Below are positions 352 through 8,257 of a DNA stretch of 12,569 nucleotides, piece after piece (position 1 is the first letter of the stretch; every line of letters starts with the position of its first letter). The notes under the pieces are model-generated. The model was not told the origin of the DNA and did no database searches. It was given only the letters and a program-made list of their open reading frames with translations. The translations under genes and the position numbers were made by a program. Origin of the DNA: Solobacterium sp. (GTDB taxonomy: Bacteria > Bacillota_I > Bacilli_A > Erysipelotrichales > Erysipelotrichaceae); the NCBI GenBank assembly GCA_017514645.1, contig JAFWJP010000230.1, positions 1 to 12,569 of the forward strand, given 5' to 3'.

Positions 352-374
352 ACTCTCCCGCGGGAGAGTTTTTT
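351..374 (+). terminator. Rho-independent terminator of the hydrolase gene
   Basis: A perfect 20-bp palindrome (351-370; arms AACTCTCC and GGAGAGTT around CGCG) runs into six T (369-374). The first base of the palindrome is the last base of the TGA stop. The convergent gene on the minus strand ends at 373, so the two genes share this spacer. On the minus strand no T-run follows the hairpin, so it should mainly stop the plus-strand transcript. Confidence 0.9.
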
Positions 375-2031
375 ATTTTCTTCCCACAAGCAGTGCTGAA
401 CCTTTCAGAGTCATCCACCGCGCTTCTTCAGCAGTCATGAAGAGACCGTCATCCGTCGGAATCAGCCGGACATCCTCAAACCCCGCATCCTTCAGTTCCT
501 TCATGAACTTCTGCATATCTCCGTAGCGCATGGGTGACATGATATCGTGGATGGCAAACGTACCTCCCTTCTTCAGTACACGCAGTGTTTCCCGCAGAAG
601 CTTCTGCTTATTGTGACCGGCGATATTGTGGTAGACATAGTTGGACGTGACCGCGTCAAAAGATTCGTCCGGATAATCCAGCCGGACCGCGTTTCCGTTT
701 TCAAAGTGTACATTGCGGACCTTTTCCGCCCTTGCGTTATCCTCACAGCGCTTCCGGCTGTAGGAAGCGTATTCCGGACCCCAGGGATCAATGCCGAACA
801 CCTCAGCCTGCGGATTCCTCTTTGCACACGCAATGGACAATGCACCGCTTCCGCACCCCACATCCAGGATCCTTCCGCCTTCCGGCACCTGGATGTACGC
901 AGCGGTTCCTTCTACGATCTGCTTCGCCATCTTCCGTTCACCTTCATAGGAGAACTGCTTGTGCAGAGCGTTCAGCCAAAGTGCCGCAGCACCGCAGCCG
1001 GCCGCACCCGCCGCCAGGATACCGCGCACACCGCATTTCACATGCAGAGACGCATCTTTCGTCAAAGGAACCGACAGTGCGCAGGCTGCCGACAATACCG
1101 CCGCACCGCCCGCAAATCCGACAATCATACCCTTCGGCACCCAGTTTGCATAGTCCGGAACACTGTGATCCGTCTGAGGGGATATCCGTACCGTACGTGC
1201 CTTCTCTTCTGTATCATCTGTTTCATCATAGCCATCATAGGGTGCATCCGGATCATGCGGTTTTTGTTTTTTCAGGGAATTGCAGACACGATCAATGTGC
1301 GCAAACGCGAAATCCAGGTCATCCGTCCATCCGGTATGCCCGGTAACGATCACATAGTTCCGTCCGCGTTCCCTGAGCGTCTTCGCCAGTGCTGCCAGTG
1401 ACCGTTTCGACAGATCATTGTCCTCTGCCAGCGAATTGATGAAACTGTATCCCCCGTCTGCCCCGAGCCACAAGGTATCCCCGGTAAAAACGTAACGGTC
1501 ATCCACAATGTAGACCATATGTCCCCAGGTATGTCCCGGAACCAGCAGACACTCCACCTTGATGCCCGAAACATCCATTACCTGACCGTCTTCCAGCAAT
1601 GTCCGGTGATTGTCGCTGACGACCGGCGGAAGTTTGTAGAGACCGAAGATGACCTTCCGGCGCAGTTCCCCGGTCATGTAGCGGTTCTCCATCGTACTGA
1701 GATACACTTCGGCGTCCCGGAACAGACCATCGCTGTCCCGTTCCAGCGCACCGACATGGTCCGTATCCTGATGTGTCAGAAAGATATGCCTGATCTCTGC
1801 CGGATCGATATCCAGCCAGGACATCTTTTCCGCAAGACGCGGATAATTGTATCCCGCATCGATCATGATCGTTGTACCGTTCTTCGTATAGAAGAAGATG
1901 TTGGCGATCCATTCCCTTACACACGCAGTATGCTTATCGATCCAGCCGGTCGGCATCGGCTTGAAGATCTCCTTGCCCCGGTACCCGATACTCATGACGA
2001 TCTTCTGAAACTGTGAAGCCTGTTTTGACAT
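373..2031 (-). CDS. MBL-fold hydrolase / two TM helices / SAM methyltransferase fusion
   Basis: A 552-residue protein with three parts. Residues 1-250 are a metallo-beta-lactamase fold: THQDTDH at 86-92 gives H87, D89, D91 and H92, followed by PGHTWGH (165-171), FTGDTLW (182-188) and VTGHTGW (229-235). D89 replaces the second His of canonical HxHxDH, a variant I recall in related Bacillota MBL proteins. An acidic linker (about 255-295) leads to two hydrophobic helices at about 302-324 and 335-355. Residues 365-552 are a class I methyltransferase with LDVGCGSG (389-396), acidic FGID (412-415), the SNYVYHNI segment and LRVLKKGGTFAIHD. Both catalytic parts should lie on the same, presumably cytoplasmic, side. 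The start has GGAGG 8 nt upstream. There is no frameshift at the junction, so the fusion is read directly from one frame. The substrates are not known. The gene is apparently monocistronic. Confidence 0.9.
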   Translation of the reverse strand: MSKQASQFQKIVMSIGYRGKEIFKPMPTGWIDKHTACVREWIANIFFYTKNGTTIMIDAGYNYPRLAEKMSWLDIDPAEIRHIFLTHQDTDHVGALERDSDGLFRDAEVYLSTMENRYMTGELRRKVIFGLYKLPPVVSDNHRTLLEDGQVMDVSGIKVECLLVPGHTWGHMVYIVDDRYVFTGDTLWLGADGGYSFINSLAEDNDLSKRSLAALAKTLRERGRNYVIVTGHTGWTDDLDFAFAHIDRVCNSLKKQKPHDPDAPYDGYDETDDTEEKARTVRISPQTDHSVPDYANWVPKGMIVGFAGGAAVLSAACALSVPLTKDASLHVKCGVRGILAAGAAGCGAAALWLNALHKQFSYEGERKMAKQIVEGTAAYIQVPEGGRILDVGCGSGALSIACAKRNPQAEVFGIDPWGPEYASYSRKRCEDNARAEKVRNVHFENGNAVRLDYPDESFDAVTSNYVYHNIAGHNKQKLLRETLRVLKKGGTFAIHDIMSPMRYGDMQKFMKELKDAGFEDVRLIPTDDGLFMTAEEARWMTLKGSALLVGRK

Positions 2032-2748: not shown

Positions 2749-2774
2749 AAAAATGCAGGCCTTTCAGCCTGCAT
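2749..2774 (-). terminator. Terminator of the PASTA-ABC-lipoprotein operon
   Basis: On the minus strand ATGCAGGC (2767-2774) pairs perfectly with GCCTGCAT (2753-2760) around the loop TGAAAG, followed by five T (2749-2753, first T shared with the stem). It begins 8 bp after the stop codon of the DUF4349 gene. Confidence 0.92.
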
Positions 2775-2782
2775 ATTGCTTA

Positions 2783-3715
2783 TCAAAGAATCTTGTCTCC
2801 CTTGACTTCCTTTTTCGCCTGTCTTCTGCCCTTCAGCCATCTCCAGCACTTCCGCACTGCCCAGATGAGCGGAACACCGATCACAGCCACCGGAATCAGC
2901 CGGATGATCGTCAGGATCACCTGCTGGATGAGCCAGACAAAGAACTGTCCTGCCCACTGCAGCGTGGATACGAACCGCTTCCCGAAGTTGCCCGTATACA
3001 GATCCTCATTGGTCTCGGTATACTCCGTCACTTCCCGTACATTCAGGTATACCGTGGAATACTCCACATCGGTATCCATGTCATTGCGCAGATTCTGATA
3101 GTACTTCAGATCCGATTCCACCTCGCTCAGACGGCGCTCGATCGTGATCATATCCTCCACGTTCTGCGCGTTCCTGAGCATCTCCAGCAGACGCTCCTGC
3201 TGAATCTCCAGACTCTCGATCTCCGTGGAAACACTGCTGTAGCGCCGGGTGATGTTCTCGATGTTCGTGCTCAGGCTTCTGACCTTGCCGGTTCCCTGCA
3301 TATCATTCAGGAAATCATAGAACCTGCCGGAAGGTACTCTCAGTGTCATGGACAGGGAACGTGTTCCCTTATTGCCGTAACCGCGCCAGCTGTTGTCATA
3401 ATCATATGCGTTCTCGTTCTGGATCATGACACCGTACTGATCGATCCAGGTACGGATATTCTTCACCGTCTCATCATAGTCCAGCGTCTCAATTTCCAGA
3501 CTTCCGGTATAGACCAGTTTCTCGGAACTCTGTTCCTCATCGTCTGTACGTTCGGCGTCCTTCTCGTCATACGCCGCTTCTTCCATGGCTGCGGGACTGT
3601 AGTCCGCAATCCCGTTTGTCGTGTAGAATTCCGCCCCTGCAGCGTCTTCCTTCGCACTGCCGGAACAGCCGGACAGTATGAGCAGTGTACTGAGTACAGT
3701 TAACAGTTTCTTCAT
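2783..3715 (-). CDS. DUF4349-family lipoprotein
   Basis: A 310-residue protein. The N-terminus is a lipoprotein signal with lipobox LSGC, so Cys17 would be the lipidated residue. An acidic, low-complexity stretch (20-65) follows. The DUF4349 core starts at LVYTGSLEIET and includes LRVPSGRFYDFL (125-136). A charged coiled-coil hairpin spans about 155-212, and then comes a strand region with VEYSTVYLNVREV. A hydrophobic helix (about 252-287) ends in a basic tail. This layout implies an extracytoplasmic domain anchored at both ends. The family has no firm biochemical role; members are often next to ABC exporters or sigma-factor loci. GGAGG lies 7 nt before the ATG. The ATPase stop is 10 bp upstream, so this is the last gene of the four-gene operon. 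Confidence 0.88.
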   Translation of the reverse strand: MKKLLTVLSTLLILSGCSGSAKEDAAGAEFYTTNGIADYSPAAMEEAAYDEKDAERTDDEEQSSEKLVYTGSLEIETLDYDETVKNIRTWIDQYGVMIQNENAYDYDNSWRGYGNKGTRSLSMTLRVPSGRFYDFLNDMQGTGKVRSLSTNIENITRRYSSVSTEIESLEIQQERLLEMLRNAQNVEDMITIERRLSEVESDLKYYQNLRNDMDTDVEYSTVYLNVREVTEYTETNEDLYTGNFGKRFVSTLQWAGQFFVWLIQQVILTIIRLIPVAVIGVPLIWAVRKCWRWLKGRRQAKKEVKGDKIL

Positions 3716-3725
3716 GTTGAACCTC

Positions 3726-4403
3726 CTATCTGAGATCCCTGAGCACTCCGTTTCTCAAAAGGATCCGGCGATCGCTCAGTTTCGATACTTCATTCGAATG
3801 CGTCACCACAATGATCGTCTTCCCGTATTTCTCTGCCAGCATCTGGAACAGTTTGATGATCTCCTGCTCGGTCTCCGTATCCAGGTTTCCTGTCGGCTCA
3901 TCCGCGAAGATCAGATCCACGTTTCCCGCAATCGCTCTGGCGATCGCTATTCTCTGCTGCTCACCTCCGGACAGTCTGTTGACCAGTCTGTCCGCCTTGG
4001 TGTTTACGATGCCGACCATATCGAGCAGTGCGTAGGCAAGCTCCTTGTGGTTGGGGGGCAGTTCATTGTCTGTCTCCGTCATTGCCAGCAGAACGTTCTC
4101 CACACCGGTCAGATAGGAGATCAGGTTGTAGGACTGGAACACAACGCCTACCTTGTTGCGGCGGTATTCGTACAGTCCGATTTCATCCACATCCTGACCG
4201 TCATAGTAGATCTTGCCCTCTTCCTGCTTGTCCAGACCCGCCATAATGCTCAGAAGCGTTGTCTTGCCGGATCCGGAAGGACCCAGGATGGTATAGAACG
4301 TACCGCGTTCAAAGTCATAGCTCAGATTCTTCAGAATATCTCTCCGGTATCCACCGTCAATATATCCGTAGCTGATATCTTCCAGTTTCAGTATCGTATC
4401 CAT
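3726..4403 (-). CDS. ABC transporter ATPase, MacB/LolD type
   Basis: A 225-residue cytoplasmic ATPase with all expected motifs: Walker A GPSGSGKT (41-48), Q-loop VVFQSYNL (Q90), signature LSGGEQQR (144-151), Walker B LIFADEP (164-170, catalytic E169), D-loop GNLD and switch histidine H202 in VTHSN. The length and the EPTGNLDT segment are typical of the MacB/LolD/FtsE group that works with FtsX-fold permeases. It therefore most likely drives the permease encoded 8 bp upstream, by mechanotransmission rather than by classical import. AGGAGG lies 4 nt before the ATG, a short spacing. There is no sign of damage. Confidence 0.95.
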   Translation of the reverse strand: MDTILKLEDISYGYIDGGYRRDILKNLSYDFERGTFYTILGPSGSGKTTLLSIMAGLDKQEEGKIYYDGQDVDEIGLYEYRRNKVGVVFQSYNLISYLTGVENVLLAMTETDNELPPNHKELAYALLDMVGIVNTKADRLVNRLSGGEQQRIAIARAIAGNVDLIFADEPTGNLDTETEQEIIKLFQMLAEKYGKTIIVVTHSNEVSKLSDRRILLRNGVLRDLR

Positions 4404-4411
4404 AATCCCTC

Positions 4412-5989
4412 CTAGTTCTGCTCCAGCAGGATCTGTTTCGGATTCAGCCGCATGATCATATAGGACGGTACCAGGATCGCAATCAGAACGACTGCCGCGC
4501 CGAGAATGTAGATCTCACCCACCAGTTTCGGGGAAATGCGCACTTCATACTCCGACAGCAGCTCTTCCTGAGTCACTTCCGTGAAGTAGTTCGTATCACC
4601 GTAGTAGTAATATCCGCCGTTGTAGGATTCATCCTCGTACTGCGCATCGCTCTCCGTCTGATAGGACAGGACTGCTTCACCGACTCTTCCCGCGATCAAG
4701 GAACCGCTTCCTACAGCCAGCGTAAAACCGACCAGCGCAATCAGGATCAGTTCATAGAACAGCTGCAGAACGATCTTCACCTTGGAAACACCGATGCTCA
4801 GAAGAACACCGATTTCATATTCCCTCGTCTTCAGGGTCAGCGCTGTTACAAGCGTGATGATGACAACAGCGTTGACGACCACGATCCAGACCACGAAGTT
4901 GGCGAAGAAGCTCATCGTATCCAGAGGACGCGCCATCTTCCTGAACTGTTCATTGTTCGCGTTCAGCTTGGTATAGTCCGCAAGATCACCTTCATGATCC
5001 TTGACAAAGTCATCAACATTCAGAGGATCATCCAGCAGATAGACCACCTTGTTCGGTGTCTCTGCCTGCGCCAGCTGCTGTTCCAGATCAACTTCGCTGT
5101 ACCATTCCGGATTCTGCTGGCTGTAGTACTCATACTGTACGCGCATGATCTCTCTCTGCATTTCCGAGAACGTACTCAACGGGATCAGAATGATGTTCTG
5201 GGGATTCTCATACGGAGACATCCAGCGGTAGTAATCCGACGCCGGATCTGCTTCATTCGCATTGTTGTAGATACCGATGATCTCCAGGGGAAGATCAAAC
5301 TCCTCCACCGTCCGGTTCATCGGCGTCAGCCATTCCTGGGCCCACATATCCAGAGTGGATACCGTGATCGTATCACCGACCCGCAGGTTGTTCTGTTCCG
5401 CCAGCTGTTCCGTGATCAGCGCGACTTTCTTCGCATCCTCCAGATCATTCTTGTCAAAGTAGCGTCCGGAAGTCACCGTGAAGGTTCCTTCCTCCAGTTC
5501 GATCATATTGTCCGTACCGTTCGCATACAGCATGATCGTCGGCTCGACATACTCCATCTCCGTACCGTCTTCCATCATGACCGTTCCGCCGTGGTTGTTC
5601 TCCTCGTAATCATTGTTCAGTTTTACATAGTCGAAATCCCTGGCATACGCTGTCGTATTGGTCAGATAGTTCAGAGCCTTTACCCGCTCATCCTGAGCGA
5701 TATTCAGCGCTGTCTCCCTGTCCAGACGCGGAGAATTGCGGTAGGCTTCCTGCTGCTCATCCTCATCCTCCAGACTGTCCGCATAGCGCCAGAACGCATC
5801 ATAGTCGATCTCATAGCTGACCGCAGCCCGCATGCGCTGCCTTGTCAGGATCTTTGCATTGTCCGCCGCCTGCGACACACCCAGTCCCAGAATGACCAGA
5901 TTGCCGATCAGAAAGAATGTCACGATCAGAAGAATCGTCTTCGTCGGTTTCCTTGTGATGTATCTCCATGCTCGTTTGAACGCGTTCAT
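4412..5989 (-). CDS. MacB/FtsX-type ABC transporter permease
   Basis: A 525-residue permease with four membrane helices at about 17-38, 362-385, 407-433 and 490-512. The large extracytoplasmic MacB-PCD-like domain lies between TM1 and TM2. The FtsX-fold coupling segment REYEIGVLLSIGVSK (389-403) and the C-terminal LNPKQILLE are family hallmarks. Unusual is the TM3-TM4 loop (about 442-488), which is tyrosine- and acid-rich, with four consecutive Tyr at 460-463. Family members with this fold include MacB, lipoprotein movers and bacteriocin/peptide-sensing exporters; the substrate cannot be assigned here. The ATG overlaps the stop of the PASTA gene by 4 bp (ATGA), and its AGGAGG lies in that gene's last codons, so translation is coupled. 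Confidence 0.93.
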   Translation of the reverse strand: MNAFKRAWRYITRKPTKTILLIVTFFLIGNLVILGLGVSQAADNAKILTRQRMRAAVSYEIDYDAFWRYADSLEDEDEQQEAYRNSPRLDRETALNIAQDERVKALNYLTNTTAYARDFDYVKLNNDYEENNHGGTVMMEDGTEMEYVEPTIMLYANGTDNMIELEEGTFTVTSGRYFDKNDLEDAKKVALITEQLAEQNNLRVGDTITVSTLDMWAQEWLTPMNRTVEEFDLPLEIIGIYNNANEADPASDYYRWMSPYENPQNIILIPLSTFSEMQREIMRVQYEYYSQQNPEWYSEVDLEQQLAQAETPNKVVYLLDDPLNVDDFVKDHEGDLADYTKLNANNEQFRKMARPLDTMSFFANFVVWIVVVNAVVIITLVTALTLKTREYEIGVLLSIGVSKVKIVLQLFYELILIALVGFTLAVGSGSLIAGRVGEAVLSYQTESDAQYEDESYNGGYYYYGDTNYFTEVTQEELLSEYEVRISPKLVGEIYILGAAVVLIAILVPSYMIMRLNPKQILLEQN

Positions 5990-7839
5990 CCATTGCCTCC
6001 TTGTTCATTCTGTCCAGTTTCTCCGCCAGACGTTTGATCCCCAGAGGATCCACCTTCATCTTCCGATGAAGATTCGCCATTATTGTATTTAATAGTCACC
6101 GCTTCATTGGACTTGATAACGTATTGTGTTGAATCGTTTGTTTTAACGGTATGACCACCAACTTCTATCTGTATGTTTTCAATCGAGTTGTCTTGAACAT
6201 AGGTACAGCTGAGTCCATTACTATTGCAGAAACTCTGCGCCGCGCTCAGGCTTGCCGCATCGCTTCCGGAAAGTACGATATCCTTCACTTCCGGCGATGG
6301 TGCCGGTGCGTCCTTCGGTCCCAGGGATACCTGATAGCTGATGCGGGCATCCAGGTTCAGAGGACGCTCACAACCATCCTTCGCAATACCCTGATTCGTA
6401 TTGTCACAATGAATTGCTACGATCGTATCCTTAGGGTAATTGCTGTAAACGCGGGTCGCGTACGCTCCGTATTCTCCCGCCTGGATCCTGGCACCCTTGG
6501 TGTTCAGGTCATCAATGTAATTTTCCAGTTTGAAGTAGTTCACACCGATCCATTCATCCGTCGCTGTCTCCAGACGCGGCAGATACAGCGAAATCGTGAC
6601 TTCCAGCACTGTACCGGAATCCACCAGGGACCCAGCCGGCAGAGACTGATAGATGACCGTACCCGCCGGTGCTTCGTTGTATACCGACTTCGGGACGACC
6701 GTTACACTGTTTTTCGGGTCTGCCTTCCAGGCTTCAAACTGTTCCTGCGTATAACCCACCAGGTTGGGGATCTGGACACCTTTTCCCTTGGATACAGTAA
6801 CCGTCAGGGTTTCCCCTTCCTTCATCGCCTGTCCGGAAGCGACGCTCTGGGAAATGACCGTACCGGCCGCTTCCTTGTCGCTGTAGACTTCCGTCTTGAC
6901 CAGGGCGATCTTCTTCGTCCTTGCCCAGTTCTCCGCTTCTCCGACCGTTCTGCCGACGAAGTTCTCCACCGTGACCTGTCCGGCCGGTGCTTCACCCTTC
7001 GATACAACGATCGAGAGATTCGTTCCTCTGGTAAAGCTTCCTTCGTCCACATTGCGCAGATCGTAGGAGATGACATGTCCGTTCTCCACAGTCGTGCTGT
7101 ACTGAGTCGTTAGTTTGACTTTCTGCAGCTTGTTCTCACTGATCCACTCCCGGATCTCATCCTGGGTCATATTCCGGATATCCGGGAAGTCGATGAGTTC
7201 ATCCGGATCCGCACCGAGCGATACGACGAAAGTCATCGGCGTACTTGTCTTGACCTTCTTTCCCGGTGTAATGCTCTGGGATATGACAACATCCGCCGGT
7301 ACATCAAAGCTGTATTCGTTCGTGATCGCAACCGCTGTGTTCTCAATCTTGTTCTGCCGGGCCCAGGTACTGACCTCACTCAGATTCTTTCCGACAAAGT
7401 CGGGCATCTTGATCTTCGGGGCAAGAAACAGCCACCACAGCAGCAAACACAGCAGTGCCGCACCCGCACCAAGCCCGATCTTGACCGGTGTCTTCAGTGT
7501 CCGTTTCGGCTTCTCCACCTTCTGCAGTGTTTCCTCCTGGAAACTTGCCGGTCTGTCATCGAACACATCGTCGTCAGGCTCCGGCATCACGATCTCCTCC
7601 GGTTCTTCCGGTACCGTGGTCTTTTCCGGTTCTTCCTTCGGCGCTGCCGGCCGGACCGGCTTCACCGGTTCTTTCACCGGTTCGGGAATATCAAATTCCT
7701 CCTCTTCGGGCAGATTTTCCTCATATTTTACCGGATTGCGGGGCTGGTAGTCGGCAATACTGTCGATCTTCTCCCGTTTTCCGCTCTTTTTATCTTCCAG
7801 TTCCTGCGCAAGCTCACGCATGAAATCTCTCTGGGCCAT
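5986..7839 (-). CDS. PASTA-domain membrane protein without a kinase domain
   Basis: A 617-residue protein. Residues 1-118 are cytoplasmic, with a Pro/Glu-rich part (about 42-92) containing PVKEPVKPV. One membrane helix (121-140) follows. Four PASTA repeats are recognisable at about 142-208, 216-281, 287-351 and 354-417, each ending in a V-x-V-S-(K/L)-G-like strand and carrying V-I-S-Q-S or V-I-Y-Q-S. Two more divergent domains (about 427-507 and 518-585) each hold a cysteine pair (C478/C490 and C538/C545), and the end is a Ser/Gly/Glu tail. PASTA domains in Ser/Thr kinases of the PrkC/Stk1 type and in PBP2x bind cell-wall muropeptides or beta-lactams, but no kinase or transpeptidase domain is present. 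The start has AGGAGG 7 nt upstream. It is the first gene of the operon with the ABC genes, suggesting a wall-sensing or localisation role for that transporter. Confidence 0.92.
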   Translation of the reverse strand: MAQRDFMRELAQELEDKKSGKREKIDSIADYQPRNPVKYEENLPEEEEFDIPEPVKEPVKPVRPAAPKEEPEKTTVPEEPEEIVMPEPDDDVFDDRPASFQEETLQKVEKPKRTLKTPVKIGLGAGAALLCLLLWWLFLAPKIKMPDFVGKNLSEVSTWARQNKIENTAVAITNEYSFDVPADVVISQSITPGKKVKTSTPMTFVVSLGADPDELIDFPDIRNMTQDEIREWISENKLQKVKLTTQYSTTVENGHVISYDLRNVDEGSFTRGTNLSIVVSKGEAPAGQVTVENFVGRTVGEAENWARTKKIALVKTEVYSDKEAAGTVISQSVASGQAMKEGETLTVTVSKGKGVQIPNLVGYTQEQFEAWKADPKNSVTVVPKSVYNEAPAGTVIYQSLPAGSLVDSGTVLEVTISLYLPRLETATDEWIGVNYFKLENYIDDLNTKGARIQAGEYGAYATRVYSNYPKDTIVAIHCDNTNQGIAKDGCERPLNLDARISYQVSLGPKDAPAPSPEVKDIVLSGSDAASLSAAQSFCNSNGLSCTYVQDNSIENIQIEVGGHTVKTNDSTQYVIKSNEAVTIKYNNGESSSEDEGGSSGDQTSGGETGQNEQGGNG

Positions 7840-7865: not shown

Positions 7866-7885
7866 ATTGTACCATGTTTCCATGG
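7866..7885 (-). promoter_or_regulatory. Extended -10 promoter of the PASTA-ABC operon with an inverted repeat
   Basis: On the minus strand TACAAT (7866-7871) is preceded by TGG (TGn), an extended -10 that can work with a poor -35; none is clear here. Transcription would start near 7859, about 20 nt before the ATG. The inverted repeat CCATG-TTTC-CATGG (7872-7885) abuts the -10 and could be an operator, though it is short. Confidence 0.55.
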
Positions 7886-8067: not shown

Positions 8068-8249
8068 TTCTCCTGATCCATCCCATCGATCCGGGAACAG
8101 ATCTCTTCCCGCGCGGTCGTTTCTTCTGCTGCCTGCATATCATGAAAAAAGCCTCCGACAATGTCCGCTGCAGTTTCAAAGACTGCACACTGGTCATATG
8201 AACGAAGGCTTTCAATACCCCTGCTTACTGAAAACTGCATCGCTCTCAC
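8064..8249 (-). CDS. Possible 61-residue ORF, low support
   Basis: An open frame from ATG at 8249 to TGA at 8064. The composition looks protein-like in its second half (FETAADIVGGFFHDMQAAEE, then a charged helix). Against it, the ATG lies inside the kinase gene's terminator hairpin, no convincing ribosome binding site is present, and a terminator-like hairpin with six T falls in the middle. It may be a remnant of a longer gene whose 5' part is lost, or chance. No family is recognised. Confidence 0.22.
   Translation of the reverse strand: MRAMQFSVSRGIESLRSYDQCAVFETAADIVGGFFHDMQAAEETTAREEICSRIDGMDQEK
8145..8212 (-). ncRNA. Nested hairpin RNA ending in a T-run (small RNA, attenuator or second terminator)
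   Basis: On the minus strand AAAGCCTTCG (8203-8212) pairs with CGGAGGCTTT (8148-8157, one G-T pair) across about 45 nt, and six T end at 8145. The enclosed part folds further: CAGTG with CATTG, then TGCAGT with ACTGCA around CTTTGAA. The nested layout plus T-run looks like a short structured transcript with its own terminator. It also could act as a backup terminator of the kinase gene, or as an attenuator for transcripts entering the PASTA operon. No known RNA family is recognised. Confidence 0.4.
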
Positions 8250-8257
8250 GATGCAGT
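8231..8257 (-). terminator. Terminator of the cytidylate kinase-like gene
   Basis: On the minus strand ACTGCATCG (8249-8257) pairs perfectly with CGATGCAGT (8234-8242) around TGAGAG, followed by TTTT (8231-8234). It starts 6 bp after the TAA stop. Confidence 0.85.

What the first reader, a model, noticed from the sequence alone, without database searches (positions are those of the whole stretch)
2783..7839. Kinase-less PASTA protein in one operon with a MacB-type ABC complex and a DUF4349 lipoprotein
Seen: four minus-strand genes separated by -4, 8 and 10 bp between one promoter and one terminator. Known: PASTA domains bind wall muropeptides; FtsX/MacB-fold permeases transmit force across the membrane and often control wall hydrolases. 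Inference: a complete envelope machine in which a PASTA anchor positions or gates the ABC complex and the coiled-coil DUF4349 protein is its periplasm-side partner, analogous in logic to FtsEX with a hydrolase or adaptor.
Basis: partly seen in the sequence, partly recalled or inferred. Interest (0 to 1): 0.7.

Follow-up and report, generated by a model that had tools for sequence, protein, structure and literature searches.

The report
Wall-binding subunit of an ABC machine
A bacterium related to gut Solobacterium carries a putative cell-wall-binding membrane protein whose gene, in nearly all relatives examined, sits beside an ATP-driven membrane machine, which suggests a wall-sensing ABC system whose job is still unknown.

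Summary
The four minus-strand genes and their spacing (-4, 8, 10 bp) are real and a terminator-like hairpin follows; the promoter is only a candidate seen by eye. Three genes form a conserved module: a kinase-less PASTA protein, a MacB/FtsX-type (type VII) permease and its ATPase. Of 84 distinct PASTA proteins of this type, 76 were not cut by contig ends; 75 of these have the permease next door or one gene away. A later check set gave 26 of 27. Gene order varies. The module occurs in several families of one class and on an Enterococcus raffinosus megaplasmid. A second kinase-less PASTA family in the same bacteria has no such neighbour in 16 of 16 loci. DUF4349 is not core: it directly follows the ATPase gene in four genomes of one genus. 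By fold the permease groups with YtrF, MacB, LolC/E and FtsX. GntR or two-component genes precede the module in some relatives. Best reading: a type VII ABC system whose PASTA subunit couples wall state to ATPase cycles, probably in wall homeostasis or antibiotic stress. Linkage is shown, function inferred. Ten literature searches found no description.

The parts
5986..7839 (-). Kinase-less PASTA membrane protein, 617 aa: disordered cytosolic N-tail (about 115 aa), one TM helix (117-138), four Pfam PASTA stretches, then further small domains to about 585
   Evidence: PASTA fold matches PrkC/PknB structures
7531..7545 (-). Conserved juxtamembrane cytosolic motif SFxEE (residues 99-103); E103 invariant in alignments A1 and A2
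   Evidence: invariant columns; motif counts
7426..7491 (-). Predicted transmembrane helix of the PASTA protein (residues 117-138)
4412..5989 (-). Type VII (MacB/FtsX-fold) ABC permease, 525 aa, one N-terminal and three C-terminal long helices around a MacB_PCD-like outer domain
3726..4403 (-). ABC ATPase, 225 aa; Walker A (GPSGSGKTT), signature (LSGGEQQR), Walker B (IFADEPTGNLD) and H-loop (VVTHS) read by eye
2783..3715 (-). DUF4349 lipoprotein with C-terminal hydrophobic helix, 310 aa; accessory, directly next to the ATPase gene only in the closest relatives
2753..2774 (-). Terminator-like hairpin and T run after DUF4349
7866..7874 (-). Candidate extended -10 TGGTACAAT upstream of PASTA (by eye; same string in relative L104)
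8231..8256 (-). Terminator-like hairpin after the upstream cytidylate-kinase-like gene (by eye)

Best explanation
The module is a three-gene type VII ABC system with its own wall-binding subunit. Shown: a single-pass PASTA protein without a kinase domain is encoded beside a MacB/FtsX-fold permease and its ATPase, and this linkage is kept across families while the gene order changes. Inferred: two permeases and two ATPases form the usual type VII dimer; the PASTA rod outside the membrane binds peptidoglycan or lipid II; the conserved cytosolic tail and juxtamembrane SFxEE motif touch the ATPase or permease, so that wall state and ATP cycles are coupled across the membrane. The most likely job is wall homeostasis or the response to wall-active antibiotics, as for Ytr of Bacillus subtilis, and not bulk transport. 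DUF4349 is a recent lineage-specific addition.
Against: No expression, binding or complex data. Two PASTA genes lack the permease neighbour: L207 and L279, which keeps the tail motif. The cytosolic tail varies greatly in length, and the SFxxE form is rare in the PERM-ATP-PASTA branch (2 of 41). Deleting ytrF gave no clear phenotype in B. subtilis (PMC12772383, passages). Permease paralogues without a PASTA neighbour exist, some beside regulator-like genes (L236-L238, by eye). Fold alone does not separate YtrF from MacB, LolC/E or FtsX. Complex prediction could not be run.
Confidence: 0.5

Rival explanations
1. Efflux pump: a MacB/YknYZ-like exporter of peptides or antibiotics in which the PASTA rod replaces the MacA/YknX adaptor and guides substrate through the wall.
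For: Permease fold groups with MacB, with streptococcal 5xu1 and with the outer domain of YknZ; two permeases with one ATPase in L041, L042, L137 and L287, L293 recall heterodimeric transporters.
Against: No membrane fusion protein domain found: the BSH labels precomputed for five homologues listed were not reproduced in the four of them that I scanned; the model shows a string of PASTA domains, not an adaptor fold. Downstream neighbours that I named were varied.
Confidence: 0.22
2. Bce-like detoxification and sensing module that frees lipid II from antimicrobial peptides and signals to the neighbouring two-component system.
For: Response regulator and histidine kinase genes directly upstream in 6 loci and in Enterococcus L222; permease paralogues L236-L238 have regulator-like genes too (by eye).
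Against: The permease model has four long membrane helices, unlike BceB; BceB rows align mostly about 182 residues (7tch: 338 at rmsd 13.5). The window itself shows no two-component genes in the proteins scanned.
Confidence: 0.15
3. FtsEX-like control of a wall hydrolase, with PASTA as the anchor that places the hydrolase.
For: Fold and weak profile relation to FtsX; one permease cluster of the same family carries a PcsB-coiled-coil/M23 hydrolase (L242); UvrB-like genes in 18 loci and a protease-like gene in 14 lie upstream (named by eye).
Against: No hydrolase was found as a constant neighbour: the genes after the ATPase that I looked at vary, and L242 lacks PASTA.
Confidence: 0.1

Closest known systems
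YtrEF / YtrGABCDEF of Bacillus subtilis
   Different: The word PASTA does not occur in PMC12772383 or PMC11466899, which treat the Ytr system; identity only 13% in the structure alignment; the window lacks the GntR part
FtsEX
   Same: Type VII permease plus ATPase with a partner outside the membrane; weak profile match to FtsX
   Different: Permease scores far below the FtsX cut-offs (30.1 against 250, 18.4 against 225 bits); the linked gene is a PASTA protein, not a hydrolase or EnvC
MacAB / YknXYZ exporters
   Same: MacB_PCD and FtsX Pfam domains and fold
   Different: No adaptor domain in the window genes scanned; ATPase and permease are separate, unlike MacB
PASTA kinases PrkC/Stk1/PknB
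   Same: PASTA rod on a single TM helix
   Different: No kinase domain; the genome has a kinase gene beside a PP2C-like gene on another contig (names partly by eye)

Membership tests
Type VII ABC transporter (MacB/FtsX fold) | Permease with N-terminal TM, large outer domain, three C-terminal TMs and FtsX domain | tested here: met
   (one search's hydropathy scan adds one borderline fifth peak)
Type VII ABC transporter (MacB/FtsX fold) | Cognate ATPase with catalytic motifs | tested here: met
   (ABC_tran); motifs by eye in the translation
FtsEX | Permease over curated FtsX score | tested here: not met
   30.1 of 250 and 18.4 of 225 bits
MacAB/YknXYZ tripartite exporter | Membrane fusion (adaptor) protein in the operon | tested here: not met
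   for the window genes; for five PASTA homologues
Ytr system | YtrF-like permease fold | tested here: inconclusive
Ytr system | YtrA-type GntR regulator and YtrBCD in the operon | tested here: not met
   absent in the window; partial likeness in L052, L054, L055, L061
PASTA Ser/Thr kinase | Protein kinase domain | tested here: not met
   NF033483 202.6 of 450 bits, best stretch in the PASTA part
Wall-sensing system | PASTA domains bind peptidoglycan, lipid II or beta-lactam | not testable with these tools
   fold only; muropeptide sensing by PASTA kinases is stated in PMC8528326 (passage)

The most novel reading that the evidence does not exclude
An ABC counterpart of the PASTA kinase: binding of wall fragments or lipid II by the PASTA rod is passed through its TM helix and conserved cytosolic tail to a type VII ATPase-permease, so that wall state gates a mechanical ABC machine rather than a kinase. 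It would be a further class of partner for type VII ABC systems, spread through Bacilli.
Probability: 0.3. Interest if true: 0.82.

Novelty: new variant of a known kind. Interest (0 to 1): 0.58.

Why it matters
Type VII ABC systems are known to work with partners such as EnvC, MacA, LolA and TesA (abstracts), and PASTA domains are known from kinases and penicillin-binding proteins. A PASTA protein as a near-constant third gene of a type VII ABC operon joins two wall-related themes and gives a concrete, testable candidate for how wall state reaches an ABC machine. Homologues of the PASTA protein are named by sources only as PASTA proteins, or as kinases although only PASTA domains are listed for them, so the system is easy to overlook.

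Tried and rejected
Misbinning of the contig: suspected because the five other same-genus genomes of the first sample lacked the genes; rejected, since 31 of 70 genus genomes have the permease, two at 86% identity with the same downstream genes.

Adaptor (BSH) domain in PASTA homologues: labels (five homologues) were not reproduced in the four scanned.

Open frames of 600-980 aa that I first took for the PASTA kinase: the eleven that I scanned have PASTA but no kinase domain; they form a second PASTA family and served as control. By eye 9 of 10 start with a membrane helix or lipobox near the N-terminus; L260 does not.

Loci that first looked incomplete (L202, L211, L116, L117, L165): my overlap filter hid the ATPase; tblastn found it. 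Counts (88 PASTA ORFs) included loci fetched by permease match, so the count used is, restricted to PASTA-chosen loci: 97 ORFs, 84 distinct, 8 cut by contig ends. One of those 8, L216, belongs to the second family. These loci are the better-scoring part of the hits: 40 of the 65 rows were fetched at first. Type was set by best-scoring query, not by neighbours. The check set was not deduplicated by sequence.

Plasmid search found 5 Enterococcus raffinosus records; I looked at two, one without annotation.

Literature: all ten searches; in the listings, and in passages of seven papers, none described a PASTA protein with a type VII ABC pair. The library holds open-licence papers only.

Full report
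OBSERVATION. Pfam gives four PASTA stretches without a kinase; FtsX plus MacB_PCD; ABC_tran; DUF4349. A terminator-like hairpin follows at 2774-2753. The promoter was not found by the scan; an extended -10 at 7874-7866 is seen by eye and recurs in the relative L104.

CONSERVATION. The PASTA protein was searched in 145 genomes of the family, and 40 of the 65 listed places were fetched. One branch has the order PASTA-permease-ATPase, a second permease-ATPase-PASTA. A scan of public genomes gave 35 named loci, Solobacterium, other Erysipelotrichaceae and one Bacillota MAG, 18 of them with a ruminant host in the title. Class-wide searches with two alignments (395 genomes each) found it in further families. 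For loci chosen by PASTA match there are 84 distinct PASTA proteins: 43 PASTA-PERM-ATP, 18 PERM-ATP-PASTA, 3 PASTA-PERM-PERM-ATP, 1 ATP-PERM-PASTA, 8 PASTA-PERM where the stretch ends inside the permease, 1 PERM-PASTA without ATPase seen (L208), 1 followed by a protein that fuses ATPase and permease (L206), 1 without neighbour (L207) and 8 cut by contig ends. So 75 of 76 assessable cases have the permease next door or one gene away. Because these were the better-scoring hits, a check set of 40 further stretches was fetched at the end: 33 of this PASTA type, 3 cut, 3 repeats, and 26 of the remaining 27 have the permease. The exception, L279, keeps the tail motif but has no permease gene nearby.

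CO-OCCURRENCE AND CONTROLS. In 70 genus genomes the permease is in 31, PASTA in 30 and both in 27; Fisher p 9e-12. Of the seven mismatches, six end at a contig break in or beside the missing gene; in the seventh (G148) the permease starts 597 bp from the contig start. In genomes with two or more systems, PASTA and permease pair by lineage, not by genome: L072/L210 77% and 93%, L073/L215 69% and 80%, against 21-26% for the other pairings of these four loci. A second kinase-less PASTA family, found in the own genome on contig C164, has no permease or ATPase neighbour in 10 of 10 loci (Pfam finds no kinase in these ten) and in 6 of 6 more (L290 and L291 are cut at one end). By eye most of the ten lack the long cytosolic tail. 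Permease paralogues without PASTA exist: none in L235-L246 has one within the stretch fetched, though some of these contigs stop near the gene.

DUF4349. It follows the ATPase gene with a 10-bp gap in G153 and G156, the closest relatives (86% permease identity), followed by the same YbjQ gene as in the window, and with 88 bp in G181. In G156 and G181 the contig ends before PASTA. It lies about 1.5-6 kb downstream in L158, L161, L165, L167, L168 and L217, L218. In the family sample 31 of 145 genomes have it over the cut-off; in the 14 others that also have the PASTA system it is on another contig. It is an accessory here. One paper passage describes a DUF4349 protein with a lipobox that was tested as a tail-anchored candidate (PMC10924467, passages), which matches the layout seen here.

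NEIGHBOURS THAT HINT AT FUNCTION. Response regulator plus histidine kinase directly upstream in six loci, and GntR plus ATPase plus membrane protein in four (one example of each scanned). On an Enterococcus raffinosus megaplasmid the order is response regulator, histidine kinase, 424-aa protein, ATPase, permease, ATPase, PASTA. The genes after the ATPase that I looked at vary. Passages on Ytr say that overexpression thickens the wall (PMC8060467), while a ytrF deletion gave no clear phenotype (PMC12772383).

READING. The linkage is strong; the function is inferred. I favour a wall-coupled type VII ABC machine with PASTA as its wall-binding subunit (0.5), over an exporter (0.22), a Bce-like module (0.15) and hydrolase control (0.1). 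It is a new variant of a known kind: type VII ABC fold and PASTA fold are both known, and the fixed pairing was not found in print in the ten searches made.

Noticed in passing
L256 2084-4096 (G000:C164): A second kinase-less PASTA protein (670 aa, five PASTA stretches) in the same genome, with a short N-tail and a 202-aa membrane protein gene beside it; relatives of it were found without ABC neighbours.
   Followed up: partly
L257 2440-4691 (G000:C143): The PrkC-type PASTA kinase lies after RsmB-like, RlmN-like and PP2C-like genes (names by eye); its reading frame has an in-frame stop and the contig ends inside it.
   Followed up: no
L242 2693-8750 (G020:C27): Permease-ATPase-permease cluster with a PcsB-coiled-coil/M23 wall hydrolase and two-component-like genes (by eye) upstream; a possible hydrolase-linked relative without PASTA.
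   Followed up: partly
L050, L051, L057, L058, L062, after the ATPase: A conserved 699-720 aa protein follows the module in five loci; in L051, the one scanned, it is a GH9 (cellulase-family) protein with a lipoprotein-like start.
   Followed up: no
L222: The whole module with two-component genes on a 1.19-Mb Enterococcus raffinosus plasmid; in another plasmid, pCX012922, the PASTA gene is annotated in two pieces near insertion sequences.
   Followed up: partly
L279 4195-5697: A PASTA protein of the ABC-linked type, tail motif included, without a permease gene beside it: a loss or a relocated partner.
   Followed up: partly
window 7885-7872: Inverted repeat CCATGGAAACATGG overlapping the candidate extended -10, a possible operator.
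   Followed up: no
window 373-2031: One protein joins a metallo-beta-lactamase-fold domain and a methyltransferase domain.
   Followed up: no
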